A DNA stretch of 33,022 bases from a virus, in the IMG/VR virus record IMGVR_UViG_3300048834_000360, positions 1 through 33,022 of that record; one strand, 5' to 3'. Numbering within the stretch: position 1 is the first letter of the stretch; every line of letters starts with the position of its first letter. Position numbers and translations under genes: made by a program. The notes under the pieces are model-generated. The model was not told the DNA's origin, did not search any database, and saw only the letters and a list, made by a program, of their open reading frames with translations. Shown here one piece after another: positions 32-32,935 of this stretch.

Positions 32-64
32 GCGGAAACCCCTTGATTCCTAGGGGGTTTCCGC
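32..64 (-). terminator. Perfect 11-bp inverted repeat beyond the tRNA 3' end
   Basis: GCGGAAACCCC (32-42) and GGGGTTTCCGC (54-64) are exact reverse complements around an 11-nt loop. The hairpin lies 3 bases beyond the 3' end of the tRNA-Met fragment, on the chromosomal side of the junction, so it probably is the host tRNA terminator. No T-run follows on the minus strand, so it would be a hairpin-only actinobacterial type. Being a protein-binding site is the alternative. Confidence 0.5.
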
Positions 65-66
65 AG

Positions 67-108
67 TGGGGCGGGTCGGGCTCGAACCGACGACGACCAG
101 ATTATGAG
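67..108 (-). other. Attachment site: 3' half of a tRNA-Met gene
   Basis: Read on the minus strand this stretch holds an anticodon loop CTCATAA (anticodon CAT), the 3' anticodon stem TCTGG, a short variable region, a TpsiC arm (GTCGG, TTCGAGC, CCGAC), the 3' acceptor strand CCGCCCC and discriminator A at 67, with no encoded CCA. Bases to the right (109 onward) do not pair with TCTGG and no 5' acceptor strand GGGGCGG or D-arm follows, so it is not an intact tRNA. A tRNA 3' half beside a tyrosine integrase is the usual attL/attR signature. Crossover near the anticodon loop is inferred; the partner att end is outside the window. Confidence 0.8.
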
Positions 109-169
109 TTTGCCAACAATCGGCGTAACCTGTTGCAGCGTATGGCTCTTCGGCGGCCCTGCTGTACGG

Positions 170-222: not shown

Positions 223-1377
223 GTGCGACGAGGATTCGGCAGCGTCCGACAGCGGTCATCCGGTCGGTGGCAGGCCCGCTACAAAGGCCCGGATGGGGTG
301 TACCACAACGCCCCCATGACGTACCCGACCAAGCGCGATGCCGAGGCCTACCTCCGCGTCGTGGAGGCGGATGTTATTCGTCAAACCTGGCGAGCGCCCG
401 CGCTCACCTCCGAGGCACTCGGCGCCTACGGCACCCGCGTCATCGATCAGCGGCCCCTACGCCCGCAGTCTCGCATTGCCTACCTCGCCGACTGGGACAA
501 CCACGTCGTCCCCTACCTCGGGAGCAAGCGTGTTGGCGCACTCACCCCAGCCGATGTCCGCACCTGGCACGCGGACCTGACGGCAGCCCTGGCTGCGCGC
601 ATGGCCGGCGTGAACTGGGTCAGCTCCGGCGGCCGCCGTGATGGTGCGGCCACGGTCGCGCGCGCCTACCGCATCCTGCGCATGGTGATGAACCAGGCCG
701 TGCTCGACGGCCTGGTGGCCGCGAACCCCTGCCAGATTAAGGGTGCCGGGACGTACAAGAAGCCGACCCGACCGACCCTCTCCCCTGCCGAAGTCGAGGC
801 ACTCGCCGCTGCGGTCCCAAAGAGATACCGGGTGCTAGTCCTCCTGCTCGCCTGGACCGGACTGAGGCTCGGTGAGGCGACCGAGCTCCGCTGGCGTGAC
901 GTCGACCTTGAGGCCTGCACGATTACCGTCGAGCGTGCCGTCTATCCAGTGAACGGCGAGTATGTCGTGGGAGAGCCCAAGTCGGACGCTGGCCGACGGC
1001 GCGTGAGCATCCCCTCCTCCCTGGCCGCCGAGATGGGTGCTGAGGGACCGGACATCCGCCACCCCGACGCTCTGGTCGTCGCTACCCGATCAGGGCGGTG
1101 CGCCTACGGTGCCGCGCAGACGGCGATCACCCGCACCCTGCGCTCCCTCGGCCGCACCGACGTGCGCGTCCACGATCTTCGCCACACCGGCCACACCCTT
1201 GCGGCCGCATCCGGCGCCACCCTCGCCGACCTCATGGAACGCCTCGGCCACTCCACTGTGAACGCATCCATGATCTACGCGCACGCGGCCGGCGACCACG
1301 GCAGGGCCCTCGCAGAGCGGCTTGACGAACGCCGAGCTGCGGTCGTCGACATTGCCGAGCGCCGGAGCGCCCGGTAA
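223..1377 (+). CDS. int: Tyrosine recombinase / phage integrase
   Basis: A 384-aa site-specific recombinase that would integrate the phage at the tRNA-Met site. The N-terminal about 60 residues resemble an arm-binding (AP2-like) domain (GSVRQRSSGRWQARYKG). Residues about 65-175 form the core-binding SAM-like domain. The catalytic domain shows the full set: R215 (TGLRLGE), K253 (EPKSDAGRR), H317 and R320 (HDLRH), H343 (LGHS) and nucleophile Y352 (MIYAH). The GTG start is chosen because CGGAGGA sits just upstream at about 211-217. Length is normal for the family and nothing is truncated. It is the first gene next to the tRNA fragment and is transcribed away from it. Confidence 0.97.
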   Translation: MRRGFGSVRQRSSGRWQARYKGPDGVYHNAPMTYPTKRDAEAYLRVVEADVIRQTWRAPALTSEALGAYGTRVIDQRPLRPQSRIAYLADWDNHVVPYLGSKRVGALTPADVRTWHADLTAALAARMAGVNWVSSGGRRDGAATVARAYRILRMVMNQAVLDGLVAANPCQIKGAGTYKKPTRPTLSPAEVEALAAAVPKRYRVLVLLLAWTGLRLGEATELRWRDVDLEACTITVERAVYPVNGEYVVGEPKSDAGRRRVSIPSSLAAEMGAEGPDIRHPDALVVATRSGRCAYGAAQTAITRTLRSLGRTDVRVHDLRHTGHTLAAASGATLADLMERLGHSTVNASMIYAHAAGDHGRALAERLDERRAAVVDIAERRSAR

Positions 1378-1480: not shown

Positions 1481-2137
1481 ATGATCCGAGCACGATTCGT
1501 GGCGGCAGCCGCGGCGAGCGTCCTGGCACTCGCCGGGTGTGGCGGAGGGCTTCAGGCCACCACCCAGGATGCGACCGAGGCGCAGTCAGCGCCGGCTGAG
1601 GCTTCCGCTCCGGCCAGCACCCCCGGAGCCTCGTCGGCTGCCCCTGAACCGGCACCGGAAGAGTCCGACCCCGTCGTCGACGAGCCGGTAGAGAGCCCCT
1701 CCCCGGCCGACGGATTCACCGAGCTGCAGTACGGCCAGCCCCTGTCCGTCTCGTCCGACGACGGCACCATGTCGAGCACGGTGACCGTGGGGAAGCCGCG
1801 GATCGCCAAGTGCCAGTACCAGTCCCTGGGGTGCGAGAAGCCCGAGATCGGCGACCGAGTCGTGACCGTGCCGCTGCTCATCGAGAACTCCGGGACCGAG
1901 ACCGCTGAGTGGAGCCCGTCCTACTTCGTGCTCGAGTTCGCCGACGGAACCCAGGTCGAGGCTGGAGACGGGAATGCCTTGGACTACCAGCCCGACAACT
2001 CCTTGGGGTACGGGCAGAAGGTCCGCGTGAACGGCAAGCTCAAGACGTCACTGACGTTCGAGGCGCCGAAGGGTCCCTTCTCCGTGCTGATCCTGGACAG
2101 CCCGTTCGACGGGGAGCCGTTCGCGGCGTGGTCCTAG
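1481..2137 (+). CDS. Secreted lipoprotein, DUF4352-like, candidate lysogeny-expressed surface protein
   Basis: A 218-aa predicted lipoprotein. Residues 1-19 are a signal peptide (MIRAR then an Ala-rich hydrophobic core) ending in the lipobox LAGC, with Cys20 as lipidation site. Residues about 25-75 are a Pro/Ala/Ser/Glu-rich linker. Residues about 80-218 form a compact domain whose pattern (VPLLIENSGTETAEW, then FVLEFADGTQVEAG) resembles the DUF4352 immunoglobulin-like fold. Two Cys (CQYQSLGC) may form a disulphide. A good Shine-Dalgarno (GGGGAGA) precedes the ATG. It is on the integrase strand, outside the late operon. Phage lipoproteins in this position can block superinfection; that role is inferred. 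Confidence 0.85.
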   Translation: MIRARFVAAAAASVLALAGCGGGLQATTQDATEAQSAPAEASAPASTPGASSAAPEPAPEESDPVVDEPVESPSPADGFTELQYGQPLSVSSDDGTMSSTVTVGKPRIAKCQYQSLGCEKPEIGDRVVTVPLLIENSGTETAEWSPSYFVLEFADGTQVEAGDGNALDYQPDNSLGYGQKVRVNGKLKTSLTFEAPKGPFSVLILDSPFDGEPFAAWS

Positions 2138-4111: not shown

Positions 4112-4229
4112 CGGATGTGGCGATGGTTGGCCGCGACGCAGGTACGTCTCGCGCACAGCCGAGCGGTCATGGACGCCCTTGGCCAGGAGAGGAGACGACT
4201 GGCACGACGCCGCGGCCAACCTCAGCGGG

Positions 4230-4931
4230 CTAGAACAGGCCGCTGCGCCACCCCAGCACGTCGATCCGCGTCTGCACGGACTCGTGGGGGCGCTTGCTCT
4301 GCCACGCCGTCCAGGCCTCGGACAGGCGCGGCGTCCAGGTCCCGTTGTAGGCCGGTCGCCGCGGGTACAGGCCGACCTTGGCCAGGGCCCGCTTCAGCAG
4401 CTTGACCCGGACGGCCGGCGCTCCCGCCCTCAGGTCGTTGGGGTGCAGCTGGCGACCGTCGGGGTGCAGGCCCATGCGCGCGATCGCGGACCTGACGGAG
4501 ACCTTGTTCGTCCCCGGCGCGAGCTCGAAGTGCATCTCGTCCGTATAGGGCATACGGAAGTCCCCACCCCACCGGAACTGCCGGAACGTGGAGCCGAGGA
4601 TCTGCTTGACCTTGGCCCTCTGGATCCTGGTCATGTTCGCCCGGCCCATGGGGAACTGTGTCGCGTCCAGGTCGACAGCGGTAGCCGACGCATGGCAGGA
4701 AAGGGCGCTGCCCGTCCTGATCGGCCGGTAGTTGTACGACCACTCGTCGAACACGCCGCCGGTCAGCGGGTCGACCTCGTAGTGGAACCTGCGGATCAGG
4801 TACTTGAACAGCGGTGCGGCGACCTCGACGGTGGTGAAGCGCCGGTTGGGGACGCCGGGGACGTCGTACGTGACCGCGCCGAGCGCCTGGGGCACCTTGC
4901 TGGCGGGCCACCCGTTGGTCGACACAGGCAT
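4230..4931 (-). CDS. Endolysin, M15-type L-Ala-D-Glu / D-Ala-D-Ala peptidase
   Basis: A 233-aa cell-wall peptidase that would cut peptidoglycan peptides at lysis. The zinc-binding M15 signature is present: H80 and D87 in SCHASATAVDLD, and H134 in DEMHFEL. SCH...A.DL followed by MHFE is typical of M15C endolysins. Residues about 165-233 look like a peptidoglycan-binding helical domain (VKLLKRALAKVGLY, YNGTWTPRLSEAW). The ATG start overlaps the holin stop as TGATG and is better spaced from GGGGA than a GTG three bases upstream. There is no signal peptide, consistent with release through the holin. It is the last gene of the late operon. Confidence 0.9.
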   Translation of the reverse strand: MPVSTNGWPASKVPQALGAVTYDVPGVPNRRFTTVEVAAPLFKYLIRRFHYEVDPLTGGVFDEWSYNYRPIRTGSALSCHASATAVDLDATQFPMGRANMTRIQRAKVKQILGSTFRQFRWGGDFRMPYTDEMHFELAPGTNKVSVRSAIARMGLHPDGRQLHPNDLRAGAPAVRVKLLKRALAKVGLYPRRPAYNGTWTPRLSEAWTAWQSKRPHESVQTRIDVLGWRSGLF

Positions 4932-5170
4932 CACAGGTCCCCGTCCCGGAGCAGGGACGCCGACTGGCGGTCACCGACGACGCTCGAGCCGAGCGACGTC
5001 AGGATCGACAGTCCCGCCCCGAACAGCATCGCCAGACCGGTGGCCTCGGCGACAGGTACGACGTCGCCGACGGTCGTGAACATGGTCACGCCCCAGGCGC
5101 CCATCCCGAACTGAGCCGCGGTCTTGACGGCCCGCTCAGCGGCGTCCTTCCAGAACTTCTTCGTCCACAT
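4931..5170 (-). CDS. Holin, r1t-like
   Basis: A 79-aa membrane protein with two hydrophobic segments, about 18-40 and 42-65, a basic amphipathic N-terminus (MWTKKFWKDAAERAVKT) and a short charged C-terminus. The start MWTKKFWKDAAERA is typical of r1t-type holins of Gram-positive phages. It would form membrane lesions that let the endolysin reach the wall. A GAGAGG ribosome binding site lies before the ATG. Its stop overlaps the endolysin start, giving the usual holin-endolysin cassette. Confidence 0.9.
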   Translation of the reverse strand: MWTKKFWKDAAERAVKTAAQFGMGAWGVTMFTTVGDVVPVAEATGLAMLFGAGLSILTSLGSSVVGDRQSASLLRDGDL

Positions 5171-5215
5171 GCTTCCGGCCTCTCACTCGTCGGTGAGTCC
5201 ACGGTGAGCCGGGTG

Positions 5216-5653
5216 TCACCCGCGGCCGAAGGTCTTGGCCTCGTGGCAGGAGCCGGGACCGGAGCACAGCATCCGCAGGTTCGCCGGGTCGTTCAGGACG
5301 TCGGCCTCGTCCTGGGTTCGGGCGGTCGACAGGCGGATGATGTGGTCGCACTGGAGGGGAAGGTCGCTGCGCCCGCACTGCTCGCATCGCCCCCCGGCCC
5401 GCTTCCTCGCGACTGTGCGGCCGCGGTGGTAGGACCGAAGCCGGTACCAGGCGCGCCATGGCTGCCGGGCGAGGCGCTGTTCCTCGGTCTGCTCCTGGGT
5501 GATGAACGCGTGCTCGGGGCAGTAGGCGCCGCGGCAGCGGCGGCCGCACACTGAGCAGGACTGCCGGCGCCCGCCGTCGGTCGAGCACCGGTCACAGCGC
5601 GGCGATCCGTCGGTGATGCGCCGCCCGCAGTTGCACGTCCGCGCGATGGCCAC
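5216..5653 (-). CDS. HNH endonuclease with N-terminal zinc motifs
   Basis: A 145-aa predicted nuclease. The N-terminal 50 residues carry Cys pairs C7/C9, C20/C23, C33/C36, C40/C45 and H48 (zinc-binding knuckles). The C-terminal half is an HNH domain: C90xxC93, D103-H104 (QCDHIIRLS), N125 (PANLRMLC), C130 and C136-H137 with K140. The GTG start lies 3 bases after the stop of the upstream gene and starts at the first zinc motif; the longer open frame upstream is a shadow of that gene. It sits at the head of the lysis cassette. A role in DNA processing or homing is possible. Confidence 0.85.
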   Translation of the reverse strand: MAIARTCNCGRRITDGSPRCDRCSTDGGRRQSCSVCGRRCRGAYCPEHAFITQEQTEEQRLARQPWRAWYRLRSYHRGRTVARKRAGGRCEQCGRSDLPLQCDHIIRLSTARTQDEADVLNDPANLRMLCSGPGSCHEAKTFGRG

Positions 5654-30809: not shown

Positions 30810-31165
30810 CAGTGGGTCCTCGCAGGCTGGGTGGGGGTGGGTTCGTGGCCGCCGTTCTGCACGAGGGCTGCGGGCAGGTCGTAGGCGCGGGCGACGTCGT
30901 CGGCGGTGTAGGAGCGGACGGCGACGGTGGTCTTCCGCTGGGACACCTGGTCGACGATCGCCTGGGCGGCCGGCCACGTGACGAGGTCCACTGCTCCCGC
31001 CGCATCTGCCGAGCGGAGGTCGCGGGCCATCGCCTCGATCAGTCCGGCGAGGCGATCGTTCTCCTGCTCCAGTTCGACGCGCTCCGCGGACAGCAGGGGC
31101 AGGAGCCCGGCGAGCAGCCGCTCGTTGAACTTCGCGCGGCGCTTCCAGGTGCGCTTACTCGGCAT
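30809..31165 (-). CDS. 118-aa coiled-coil protein downstream of parB-like gene
   Basis: The N-terminus is basic (MPSKRTWKRRAKFNERLL), followed by a Glu-rich helix (LLSAERVELEQENDRLAGLI) and a second part (SQRKTTVAVRSYTADDVARA). The ATG overlaps the ParB-like gene by 11 bases and has AAGGGCGA upstream. It may work with the ParB-like protein; no family recognised. Confidence 0.65.
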   Translation of the reverse strand: MPSKRTWKRRAKFNERLLAGLLPLLSAERVELEQENDRLAGLIEAMARDLRSADAAGAVDLVTWPAAQAIVDQVSQRKTTVAVRSYTADDVARAYDLPAALVQNGGHEPTPTQPARTH

Positions 31166-32333
31166 CGTCGTCGCCCTTCATGAGGGCCTTGTCGTCGGCG
31201 GTCAGCGGGTAGCCGAGGCCGGCCATGTTGCGGGCGTGCTCGTCGAACCAGTACAGGCGCCGGTTGTGGATGCTGGTCCACGACAGGGCCAGGGCCATGA
31301 CCTGGTCCTCACGCGGCAGCGCCTTCAGTGAGGTAGCGATCCGCTGATAAGCGTCGTCGACGTCCTCGTCCTCCCCCGGCGGGTCGATGCCGAGCAGCGG
31401 GACAGCATCGGTCAGGTCGGAGTCGGTAACCGCGGCTTCGACCGCCCAGGAGATCAGCCGGTCGAGGAACACCTGGTCGCGCACGGCGATGCGTGCGGAC
31501 GCCCAGTCGTACATCCGCTCGGTCGCCTCGCTGACCTTGGCCTGATGGGCTTCGCGCTCCTGTCGCTGCCGTTCCCACTCGGCTTCCCGGTCGGCGCGGG
31601 TAGCGGCCCCGTCGATCGTGTACTCGTCGTCCACCTCGCCGTCGGTGTCGGCCTGGGGTGGTTTGGTGGCGCGCTTGCGCTCGTCGAGGAGCGCGGAGAT
31701 CCGGGCCTTGACGCCGTAGCCGACGCCGGCGAAGCCGTAGGTGCCGGCGCCGTCGATCAGGGTCAGGATCTCTGTGTCGTCGGCGTACTTCTGCCGCAGC
31801 CGGGCGCACTCGACCGCGCCGTCCAGGGACAGCCTCCCGGCCTCGTACTGCTGCCGACGCTCGGTCGGCAGGGACGCCAGCAGGAGCCGCTCGTGGACCG
31901 TCTTCCGTGACCGGCCGGTCGCCTTCGCGATCGCGGTCTCCTTCACGCCGAGGAGTTCGAGCTGCTGGTAGGCGTCGGCTTCCTCCATCACGGTCAGGTC
32001 GGAGCGCATCACGTTCTCGACGACCATCGCTTCCAGCACCTTGGCGGGGGTGTCGAGGTCGTCGCGGACGATGCACGGCACGGACTCGATGCCGGCCTTG
32101 ATGGCGGCGGCGTGGCGCCGGTGCCCGGCGACAATCACGTACCGATCGACCGGCAGAGTGACGTGCTCCTGCGCCTCGTTCGTGAGCGGGATCGGGGCGA
32201 CGACCAGGGGCTGGAGCAGGCCCTGCGCCTTGATAGACGCGGCGAGCTCGCCGAGGTCGCCAAGGTCGCGGCGGACGTTCCGGTCATGGGACTGGATCCG
32301 GTCGACCTTGATCCGCTCGAACGTCGCGGTCAT
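31155..32333 (-). CDS. ParB-like nuclease/CTPase domain protein
   Basis: A 392-aa protein. Residues 1-115 form the ParB N-terminal domain: the GxRR-type motif (AGHRRHAAA) and ENVMRSDLT are the CTP/NTP-binding and ParB boxes. Residues about 125-160 include an HTH (KETAIAKATGRSRKTVHERL). The rest is a long charged helical region (ADREAEWERQRQEREAHQAK) and a C-terminal domain. The ATG overlaps the upstream stop (ATGA). No ParA is present in the window, so a partition role is unlikely; DNA binding in replication, transcription or host takeover is more probable. Confidence 0.9.
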   Translation of the reverse strand: MTATFERIKVDRIQSHDRNVRRDLGDLGELAASIKAQGLLQPLVVAPIPLTNEAQEHVTLPVDRYVIVAGHRRHAAAIKAGIESVPCIVRDDLDTPAKVLEAMVVENVMRSDLTVMEEADAYQQLELLGVKETAIAKATGRSRKTVHERLLLASLPTERRQQYEAGRLSLDGAVECARLRQKYADDTEILTLIDGAGTYGFAGVGYGVKARISALLDERKRATKPPQADTDGEVDDEYTIDGAATRADREAEWERQRQEREAHQAKVSEATERMYDWASARIAVRDQVFLDRLISWAVEAAVTDSDLTDAVPLLGIDPPGEDEDVDDAYQRIATSLKALPREDQVMALALSWTSIHNRRLYWFDEHARNMAGLGYPLTADDKALMKGDDDAE

Positions 32334-32557
32334 CGGGCACCGTCCGTGCGCGCGACGGCGGCGTTCGACCAGAACATGACTTCCTCGAGCTTGGTGATCG
32401 CGAGTGCTTGCTCACGGCCGGCCGGGATCTCCTCGACCAGCTGGCGGGCGAGGTCCAGGCACAGCTCGCGGATCAGGTCATGCTTCGGGCCGGTCGTTGG
32501 TGTGGCGGGGTGGAACCGGAACCGGTTGTCCAGGTCCGCGCGGGTCAGCGGGTTCAT
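32330..32557 (-). CDS. acb2: Acb2-family cyclic-nucleotide sponge, probable anti-CBASS
   Basis: A 75-aa protein. Residues 45-70 (PAGREQALAITKLEEVMFWS, then NAAVAR) match the helical hairpin signature of Acb2/T4 Vs.4-type proteins (REx-LAxTxLExxxxWxNAxIAR), and the N-terminal F13-R-F15-H-P with K25 fits the ligand-binding part. Acb2 hexamers sequester cyclic di- and trinucleotides made by CBASS and related immune enzymes. Strong AAGGAGA precedes the ATG. The gene is complete and lies with early genes next to WhiB and ParB, as expected for a gene expressed early in infection. Confidence 0.82.
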   Translation of the reverse strand: MNPLTRADLDNRFRFHPATPTTGPKHDLIRELCLDLARQLVEEIPAGREQALAITKLEEVMFWSNAAVARTDGAR

Positions 32558-32702
32558 TCGGGTCTCCTTCGGGGTGGCCGTACCGGCGGCCCGGTGCGGT
32601 GTCGTGGTTGTCTCGGTAGTGGGCGGTGAACATGCGGTTGGCTTCGTCGAGGTTCGGGGCGATGTAGGTGTGCCCGCAGAGCAGGCAGCGTCCGCGGTGC
32701 AT
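32478..32702 (-). CDS. C2H2-like zinc-finger protein
   Basis: A 74-aa protein. C6-x2-C9 and H28-x4-H33 (RCLLCGHTY, TAHYRDNHD) form a C2H2-type finger. The remaining 40 residues are Pro/Gly-rich, likely disordered. The ATG overlaps the WhiB stop (TGATG). It overlaps the Acb2 gene by 80 bases in another frame, longer than the other overlaps here, so its last part may be a relaxed extension. Confidence 0.65.
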   Translation of the reverse strand: MHRGRCLLCGHTYIAPNLDEANRMFTAHYRDNHDTAPGRRYGHPEGDPNEPADPRGPGQPVPVPPRHTNDRPEA

Positions 32703-32935
32703 CAGGTCGGGACCCACCTGATCGGGGTTCCCTCGTTCAGTGGGATGCCGGCGTAGACACCGCTGGCGAGCGGGTTGCCGAGGGCGTAGGCGGCGCAGTC
32801 GGCGTTGACGGGGCAGGCCCGGCAGATGGGGAAGGCCCGTGGCCACAGGTCCGGGTGGTCGGCGTCCCAGCACAATGGGTCGTGTCCCGCGCATGCGGCG
32901 TCGTCGAGCCATGAAGGGATGGCTTGGCGGGTCAT
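32702..32935 (-). CDS. WhiB-family transcription factor
   Basis: A 77-aa Fe-S protein. The four cluster Cys are C15, C38, C41 and C47 (CRACPVNADC) and the conserved turn is SGVYAGIPLNE. The start (PSWLDDAACAG) is typical. It is shorter than most host WhiB proteins, as phage versions often are, and the C-terminus lacks a strongly basic DNA-binding tail. It probably modulates host or phage sigma-A transcription. The ATG overlaps the stop of the partial gene upstream. Confidence 0.93.
   Translation of the reverse strand: MTRQAIPSWLDDAACAGHDPLCWDADHPDLWPRAFPICRACPVNADCAAYALGNPLASGVYAGIPLNEGTPIRWVPT

What the first reader, a model, noticed from the sequence alone, without database searches (positions are those of the whole stretch)
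32330..32557. Probable Acb2-type anti-CBASS sponge in an actinobacterial prophage
The C-terminal hairpin signature (REQALAITKLEEVMFWSNAA) matches Acb2/Vs.4 proteins that bind cyclic di- and trinucleotides. Here it is an early gene directly between WhiB/zinc-finger and ParB-like genes. The prophage may thus carry both an attack system (Rex-like) and an immune-evasion system.
Basis: partly seen in the sequence, partly recalled or inferred. Interest (0 to 1): 0.75.

Follow-up and report, generated by a model that had tools for sequence, protein, structure and literature searches.

The report
Acb2/Tad1-family helical-hairpin prophage gene
A prophage of an actinobacterium-like host carries a small gene of an already catalogued, widespread phage protein family whose studied members soak up the alarm molecules of bacterial antiviral defences; this one very likely folds the same way, but what it binds is untested and one contact residue of the known pocket is missing.

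Summary
Window 32330-32557 (-) encodes a 75-aa protein that matches Pfam PF24729 (Acb2/Tad1 hairpin) at E=3.8e-17, well above the curated cut-off. It is modelled with high confidence (pLDDT 92) as a short helix plus two long antiparallel helices, the Acb2 protomer layout. It is not rare: over 400 phage records and 552 IMG/VR stretches carry relatives, UniProt already names many 'Acb2/Tad1 hairpin domain-containing', and mycobacteriophage relatives are annotated as cyclic-nucleotide-sequestering proteins. The best reading is an Acb2-type cyclic-nucleotide sponge carried as an accessory gene. Three qualifications. It belongs to PHROG 1454, not PHROG 717, which holds T4 Vs.4. The pocket arginine R79, invariant in the seven Acb2 sequences aligned here, is an alanine (A66) that is near-invariant in this family (60 Ala, 2 Gly of 62). 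Ligand and target defence system are untested. SMODS cyclase genes are not significantly enriched in carrier genomes (5/36 against 22/245; p=0.36). No Rex-like system was found among the left-arm ORFs tested. Ordinary: a new member of a known kind.

The parts
32330..32557 (-). Acb2/Tad1 hairpin-family protein, 75 aa (phrog_1454)
   Evidence: PF24729 E=3.8e-17; phrog_1454 E=3.6e-27; model pLDDT 92.3, helices 6-12, 23-43, 48-73
32564..32569 (-). Shine-Dalgarno AAGGAG of the hairpin-protein gene
   Evidence: sequence read directly
31155..32333 (-). ParB-like gene, start codon overlaps the hairpin-protein stop (ATGA)
   Evidence: PF02195 E=4.1e-15 and PF17762; phrog_6218 E=1.2e-50
32478..32702 (-). 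small Cys/His ORF (CLLCG...H...H) overlapping the 5' end of the hairpin-protein gene; coding status uncertain
   Evidence: translation; the longer ORF in that frame gave no Pfam match
32702..32935 (-). WhiB-like regulator
   Evidence: PF02467 E=1.1e-10
223..1377 (+). tyrosine integrase (temperate phage context)
   Evidence: PF00589 E=2.2e-17; phrog_1 E=1.4e-61

Best explanation
An accessory phage gene for a small Acb2-type sponge. The 75-aa protein folds as a short N-terminal helix plus a two-helix hairpin (predicted). By analogy with T4 Vs.4 and Pseudomonas-phage Acb2 it would assemble into a hexamer and hold cyclic oligonucleotides made by CBASS-type (or type III CRISPR) enzymes without cutting them, so that the suicide effector is not switched on during infection or induction. 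Shown here: family membership, predicted protomer fold, phage location, accessory distribution. Inferred: hexamer, ligand binding, ligand identity, anti-defence function.
For: PF24729 match, of the same order as that of T4 Vs.4 itself (E=7.1e-20). Profile-profile comparison with Vs.4/Acb2 proteins: E=8.7e-6 over the C-terminal helix. The family profile finds the solved 'Acb2 homolog 43' (9ptq, E=2.6e-10) and Tad1 (E about 4e-5). The model matches the Acb2 protomer layout described in PMC12043709; Vs.4 is the top Foldseek PDB match, though not significant. The basic pocket residue K23 of Vs.4 corresponds to R30 (61 of 62 relatives), and the hexamer-contact positions L29, A66, A73, A77 of Vs.4 correspond to L36, A53, V60, S64, mostly small or hydrophobic in the family. 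Neighbours of relatives vary widely, and the record holding the closest ParB relative found has no PF24729 gene, as expected for an accessory anti-defence gene. The family is phage-borne: 0 of 245 sampled genomes of one carrier's phylum have it besides the seed.
Against: R79 of Vs.4, a cGAMP contact (PMC10097602) invariant in the seven Acb2 sequences aligned, is A66 here (60 Ala, 2 Gly of 62 relatives); the stacking residue F82 is A69, though Pseudomonas Acb2 also has Ala there. The N-terminal register (Y8 to F13, F15 or H16) differs between methods. Carriers are not significantly enriched for SMODS cyclases (5/36 against 22/245, p=0.36). The core motif is unusually conserved for an arms-race protein. 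Fold matching of a helical hairpin is weak evidence.
Confidence: 0.62

Rival explanations
1. A hairpin-family sponge for a different signal: the same fold and hexamer, but a pocket rebuilt around N65/R70 instead of R79/F82, binding for example a cyclic-ADPR-type Thoeris signal or another cyclic nucleotide that known Acb2 proteins do not prefer.
For: A66, A69, N65 and R70 are invariant or nearly so across 62 relatives while R79 is invariant in known Acb2. The C-terminal motif RExxxAxTxxEExxxWxN is shared with Tad1, which binds gcADPR as well as cyclic nucleotides.
Against: It lacks the N-terminal beta-sheet domain that Tad1 uses (layout). No ligand data; shared motifs may be structural.
Confidence: 0.22
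2. A hairpin-family protein that no longer acts as a sponge, for example a small oligomeric regulator or assembly factor in phage DNA metabolism.
For: Very strong conservation of the core; relatives often sit next to thyX, ribonucleotide reductase, ClpP-like protease or tRNA genes rather than known anti-defence genes.
Against: The solved relatives with a known function (Vs.4, Acb2, Tad1) are sponges. Neighbourhoods vary too much for a fixed partner.
Confidence: 0.14
3. Spurious ORF in GC-rich DNA.
For: Many overlapping ORFs in this 68.6% GC window.
Against: Pfam and PHROG matches far beyond chance, good ribosome site, 87% GC3, relatives in hundreds of phages.
Confidence: 0.01

Closest known systems
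PHROG 1454 relatives in actinophages, e.g. Mycobacterium phage StellaBean gp101; the same kind of protein reported in Xandras gp101 and BigBubba gp102 (PMC11953737)
   Same: StellaBean gp101: same PHROG and motif, 41% identical to the window protein, annotated as a cyclic nucleotide sequestering protein; Xandras and BigBubba carry the same annotation.
   Different: Different gene neighbourhood (after a ClpP-like protease in StellaBean). Their role in mycobacteriophage infection is stated to be unknown.
T4 Vs.4 / Pseudomonas phage Acb2 (PHROG 717; PDB 7UQ2, 8H2J)
   Same: Same Pfam family; collinear TKLxExxxxW motif in Vs.4; basic K23/R30; predicted helix layout.
   Different: Different PHROG; shorter loop between the two long helices; R79 and F82 of Vs.4 replaced by Ala; the mapping of the stacking Tyr is uncertain.
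'Acb2 homolog 43' (PDB 9ptq)
   Same: Closest solved relative by sequence, E=2.6e-10 with the family profile; shares FxxH, [LI]K and P.GREK...TKLEEAMF.
   Different: Has Lys at the R79 position where this family has Ala; no paper describing it was found in the library.
Tad1 (anti-Thoeris/anti-CBASS sponge)
   Same: Shares the C-terminal hairpin motif.
   Different: The window protein has no N-terminal beta-sheet domain and lacks the Arg pair after the conserved Asn.

Membership tests
Acb2/Tad1 hairpin family (PF24729) | Profile match above the curated cut-off | tested here: met
   62.7 bits against 27, E=3.8e-17
[quoted passage not shown]
   AlphaFold2 model pLDDT 92.3: helices 6-12, 23-43, 48-73. 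Prediction only; helical-hairpin fold matches are not specific.
Acb2 as a cyclic-nucleotide sponge | cGAMP pocket residues of Vs.4 (Y8, H11, K23, R79, F82) | tested here: inconclusive
   K23 corresponds to R30. R79 corresponds to A66 and F82 to A69, but F82 is also Ala in Pseudomonas Acb2. The Y8/H11 register is ambiguous: F13, F15 or H16.
Acb2 as a cyclic-nucleotide sponge | Hexamer interface (L29, A66, A73, A77 of Vs.4) | tested here: inconclusive
   Corresponding residues L36, A53, V60, S64 are small or hydrophobic; no oligomer was modelled
Acb2 as a cyclic-nucleotide sponge | Binds and releases intact cyclic oligonucleotides; inhibits CBASS | not testable with these tools
   needs binding and phage assays
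PHROG 717, the group used to list Vs.4 homologues (PMC10097602) | Match to the PHROG 717 profile | tested here: not met
   The best PHROG is 1454 at E=3.6e-27; 717 is not listed at E<=1, while Vs.4 hits 717 at 2.3e-32 and 1454 only weakly
Tad1 | N-terminal beta-sheet domain before the hairpin | tested here: not met
   75 aa, all-helical model

The most novel reading that the evidence does not exclude
PHROG 1454 is a large separate branch of the hairpin sponges, common in actinophages, whose pocket has been rebuilt (near-invariant N65, A66, A69, R70 instead of R79) to capture an immune signal other than those taken by known Acb2 proteins.
Probability: 0.2. Interest if true: 0.5.

Novelty: new member of a known kind. 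Interest (0 to 1): 0.22.

Why it matters
If it is a sponge, it adds to the evidence that temperate actinophages carry protection against nucleotide-signalled abortive infection, in a group of hosts where such counter-defence is barely tested. The pocket difference makes the branch a useful test of how the hairpin fold changes ligand. The single gene itself is ordinary.

Tried and rejected
Rex-like partner: no PADLOC hit that matters in the nine other ORFs tested; only some of the left-arm ORFs were scanned. Conserved neighbour: no ParB relative is found beside any other copy, and WhiB only once, 3.5 kb away. CBASS co-occurrence: no significant enrichment; the comparison is crude, because carriers have larger genomes and only the SMODS domain was counted. 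Foldseek and VIA matches: Vs.4 and Tad1 are listed, but unrelated helical hairpins score as well or better, so this is not used as proof. NCBIfam and PADLOC gave no match for the protein. Primary papers on Pseudomonas Acb2 and on Tad1/cA3 binding are not in the library, so the trinucleotide site could not be mapped. tRNA and Rfam scans found nothing.

Full report
What is there. The window is a whole 33,022-base IMG/VR virus record at 68.6% GC. It has a tyrosine integrase at the left and, on the - strand, tail, capsid and terminase genes preceded by HNH, ParB-like, hairpin-protein and WhiB-like genes. The reported ORF at 32330-32557 (-) encodes 75 aa, has an AAGGAG ribosome site and 87% GC3, and its stop codon overlaps the ParB-like start codon.

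Identity. Pfam assigns it to PF24729, Acb2/Tad1 hairpin, E=3.8e-17; PHROGs assigns it to phrog_1454, unknown function, E=3.6e-27. T4 Vs.4 also hits PF24729, but its PHROG is 717. Relatives were found in 401 phage records at E<=0.1, mostly Mycobacterium, Paenibacillus, Gordonia and Streptomyces phages, in 552 IMG/VR stretches by one core pattern, and at 80 loci in bacterial or archaeal genome contigs. Most phage copies listed are 'hypothetical protein'; UniProt names many 'Acb2/Tad1 hairpin domain-containing protein'; StellaBean gp101 is 'cyclic nucleotide sequestering protein', and a genome paper says the same of Xandras and BigBubba, adding that the role in mycobacteriophage infection is unknown (PMC11953737). 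So the family is catalogued and its function in actinophages is untested as far as this library shows.

Structure. From 62 window and locus sequences AlphaFold2 gives pLDDT 92.3 with helices 6-12, 23-43 and 48-73. This is the Acb2 protomer as described (one short N-terminal helix, two long antiparallel helices; PMC12043709). Vs.4 (7UQ2) is Foldseek's top PDB hit, but at E=3.7, and unrelated hairpins rank above it with VIA-align. Sequence profiles are stronger evidence: 'Acb2 homolog 43' (9ptq) E=2.6e-10 and Tad1 about 4e-5; profile-profile with Vs.4/Acb2 E=8.7e-6.

Pocket. In Vs.4 cGAMP is held by Y8 and F82 (stacking) and Y8, H11, K23, R79 (hydrogen bonds, salt bridges), and hexamers depend on L29, A66, A73, A77 (PMC10097602). 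The C-terminal register is fixed by hhalign (window 43-72 on Vs.4 56-85) and agrees with the Pfam coordinates: R79 maps to A66, F82 to A69, T68 to T55, Q83 to R70. In 62 relatives A66 is Ala in 60 and Gly in 2, A69 and N65 are invariant, and R70 is Arg in 61, whereas R79 is invariant in the seven Acb2 sequences aligned. F82 is not a fixed feature, since Pseudomonas Acb2 has Ala there. K23 maps to R30. The N-terminal aromatic cannot be mapped with confidence: motif spacing suggests F13/H16, Pfam F15, MAFFT H16. The fold and part of the pocket are kept; ligand preference may differ.

Context. Neighbours of relatives differ from phage to phage: thyX and ribonucleotide reductase, ClpP-like protease, endolysin-holin, RelBE, HicAB, tRNAs, terminase. 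No other copy lies beside a ParB relative. The closest ParB relative found (58%, L186) is preceded by an unrelated gene, and its record has no PF24729 gene; that record may be a fragment. This is the pattern of an accessory gene. Of 36 actinobacterial carrier genomes 5 have a SMODS cyclase against 22 of 245 sampled from one carrier's phylum, not significant. One carrier, Nonomuraea thailandensis, has a cyclase and a Cap15 effector gene next to integrase genes, about 15 kb from its hairpin-protein gene; a single case, not a trend.

Verdict. The Rex-like pairing is not supported by what was scanned. Novelty is low; the one point worth a specialist's attention is the substituted pocket arginine of PHROG 1454.

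Noticed in passing
L188:1266-2885 and 4172-5608 (Nonomuraea thailandensis, G008:C2, about 9.954 Mb): A CD-NTase gene (PF18144, PADLOC cyclase) followed by a Cap15 effector gene (PF18153 E=4.1e-24) lies next to integrase genes, about 15 kb from a PHROG 1454-type hairpin-protein gene at 9970129-9970299; CBASS and putative sponge may share one integrated element or neighbouring ones.
   Followed up: partly
L081:3758-4498: A hairpin domain embedded in a 247-aa ORF with long charged flanks, so some relatives may be fusions or longer proteins (PF24729 at residues 95-151).
   Followed up: no
window 1481-2137 (+): A 218-aa ORF just after the integrase with a sub-threshold DUF4352 match (E=4e-5, 24.3 bits against a cut-off of 25.9); possibly a surface lipoprotein gene carried by the prophage.
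   Followed up: no
window 60-130: The sequence GCGGGTCGGGCTCGAACCGACGACGACCAG before the integrase resembles the 3' part of a tRNA gene on the - strand, a likely attachment site; ARAGORN finds no complete tRNA.
   Followed up: partly
L015:2498-2701 (Paenibacillus phage PBL1c): The hairpin-family gene is annotated in GenBank as 'putative phosphomannomutase', apparently a wrong name.
   Followed up: no
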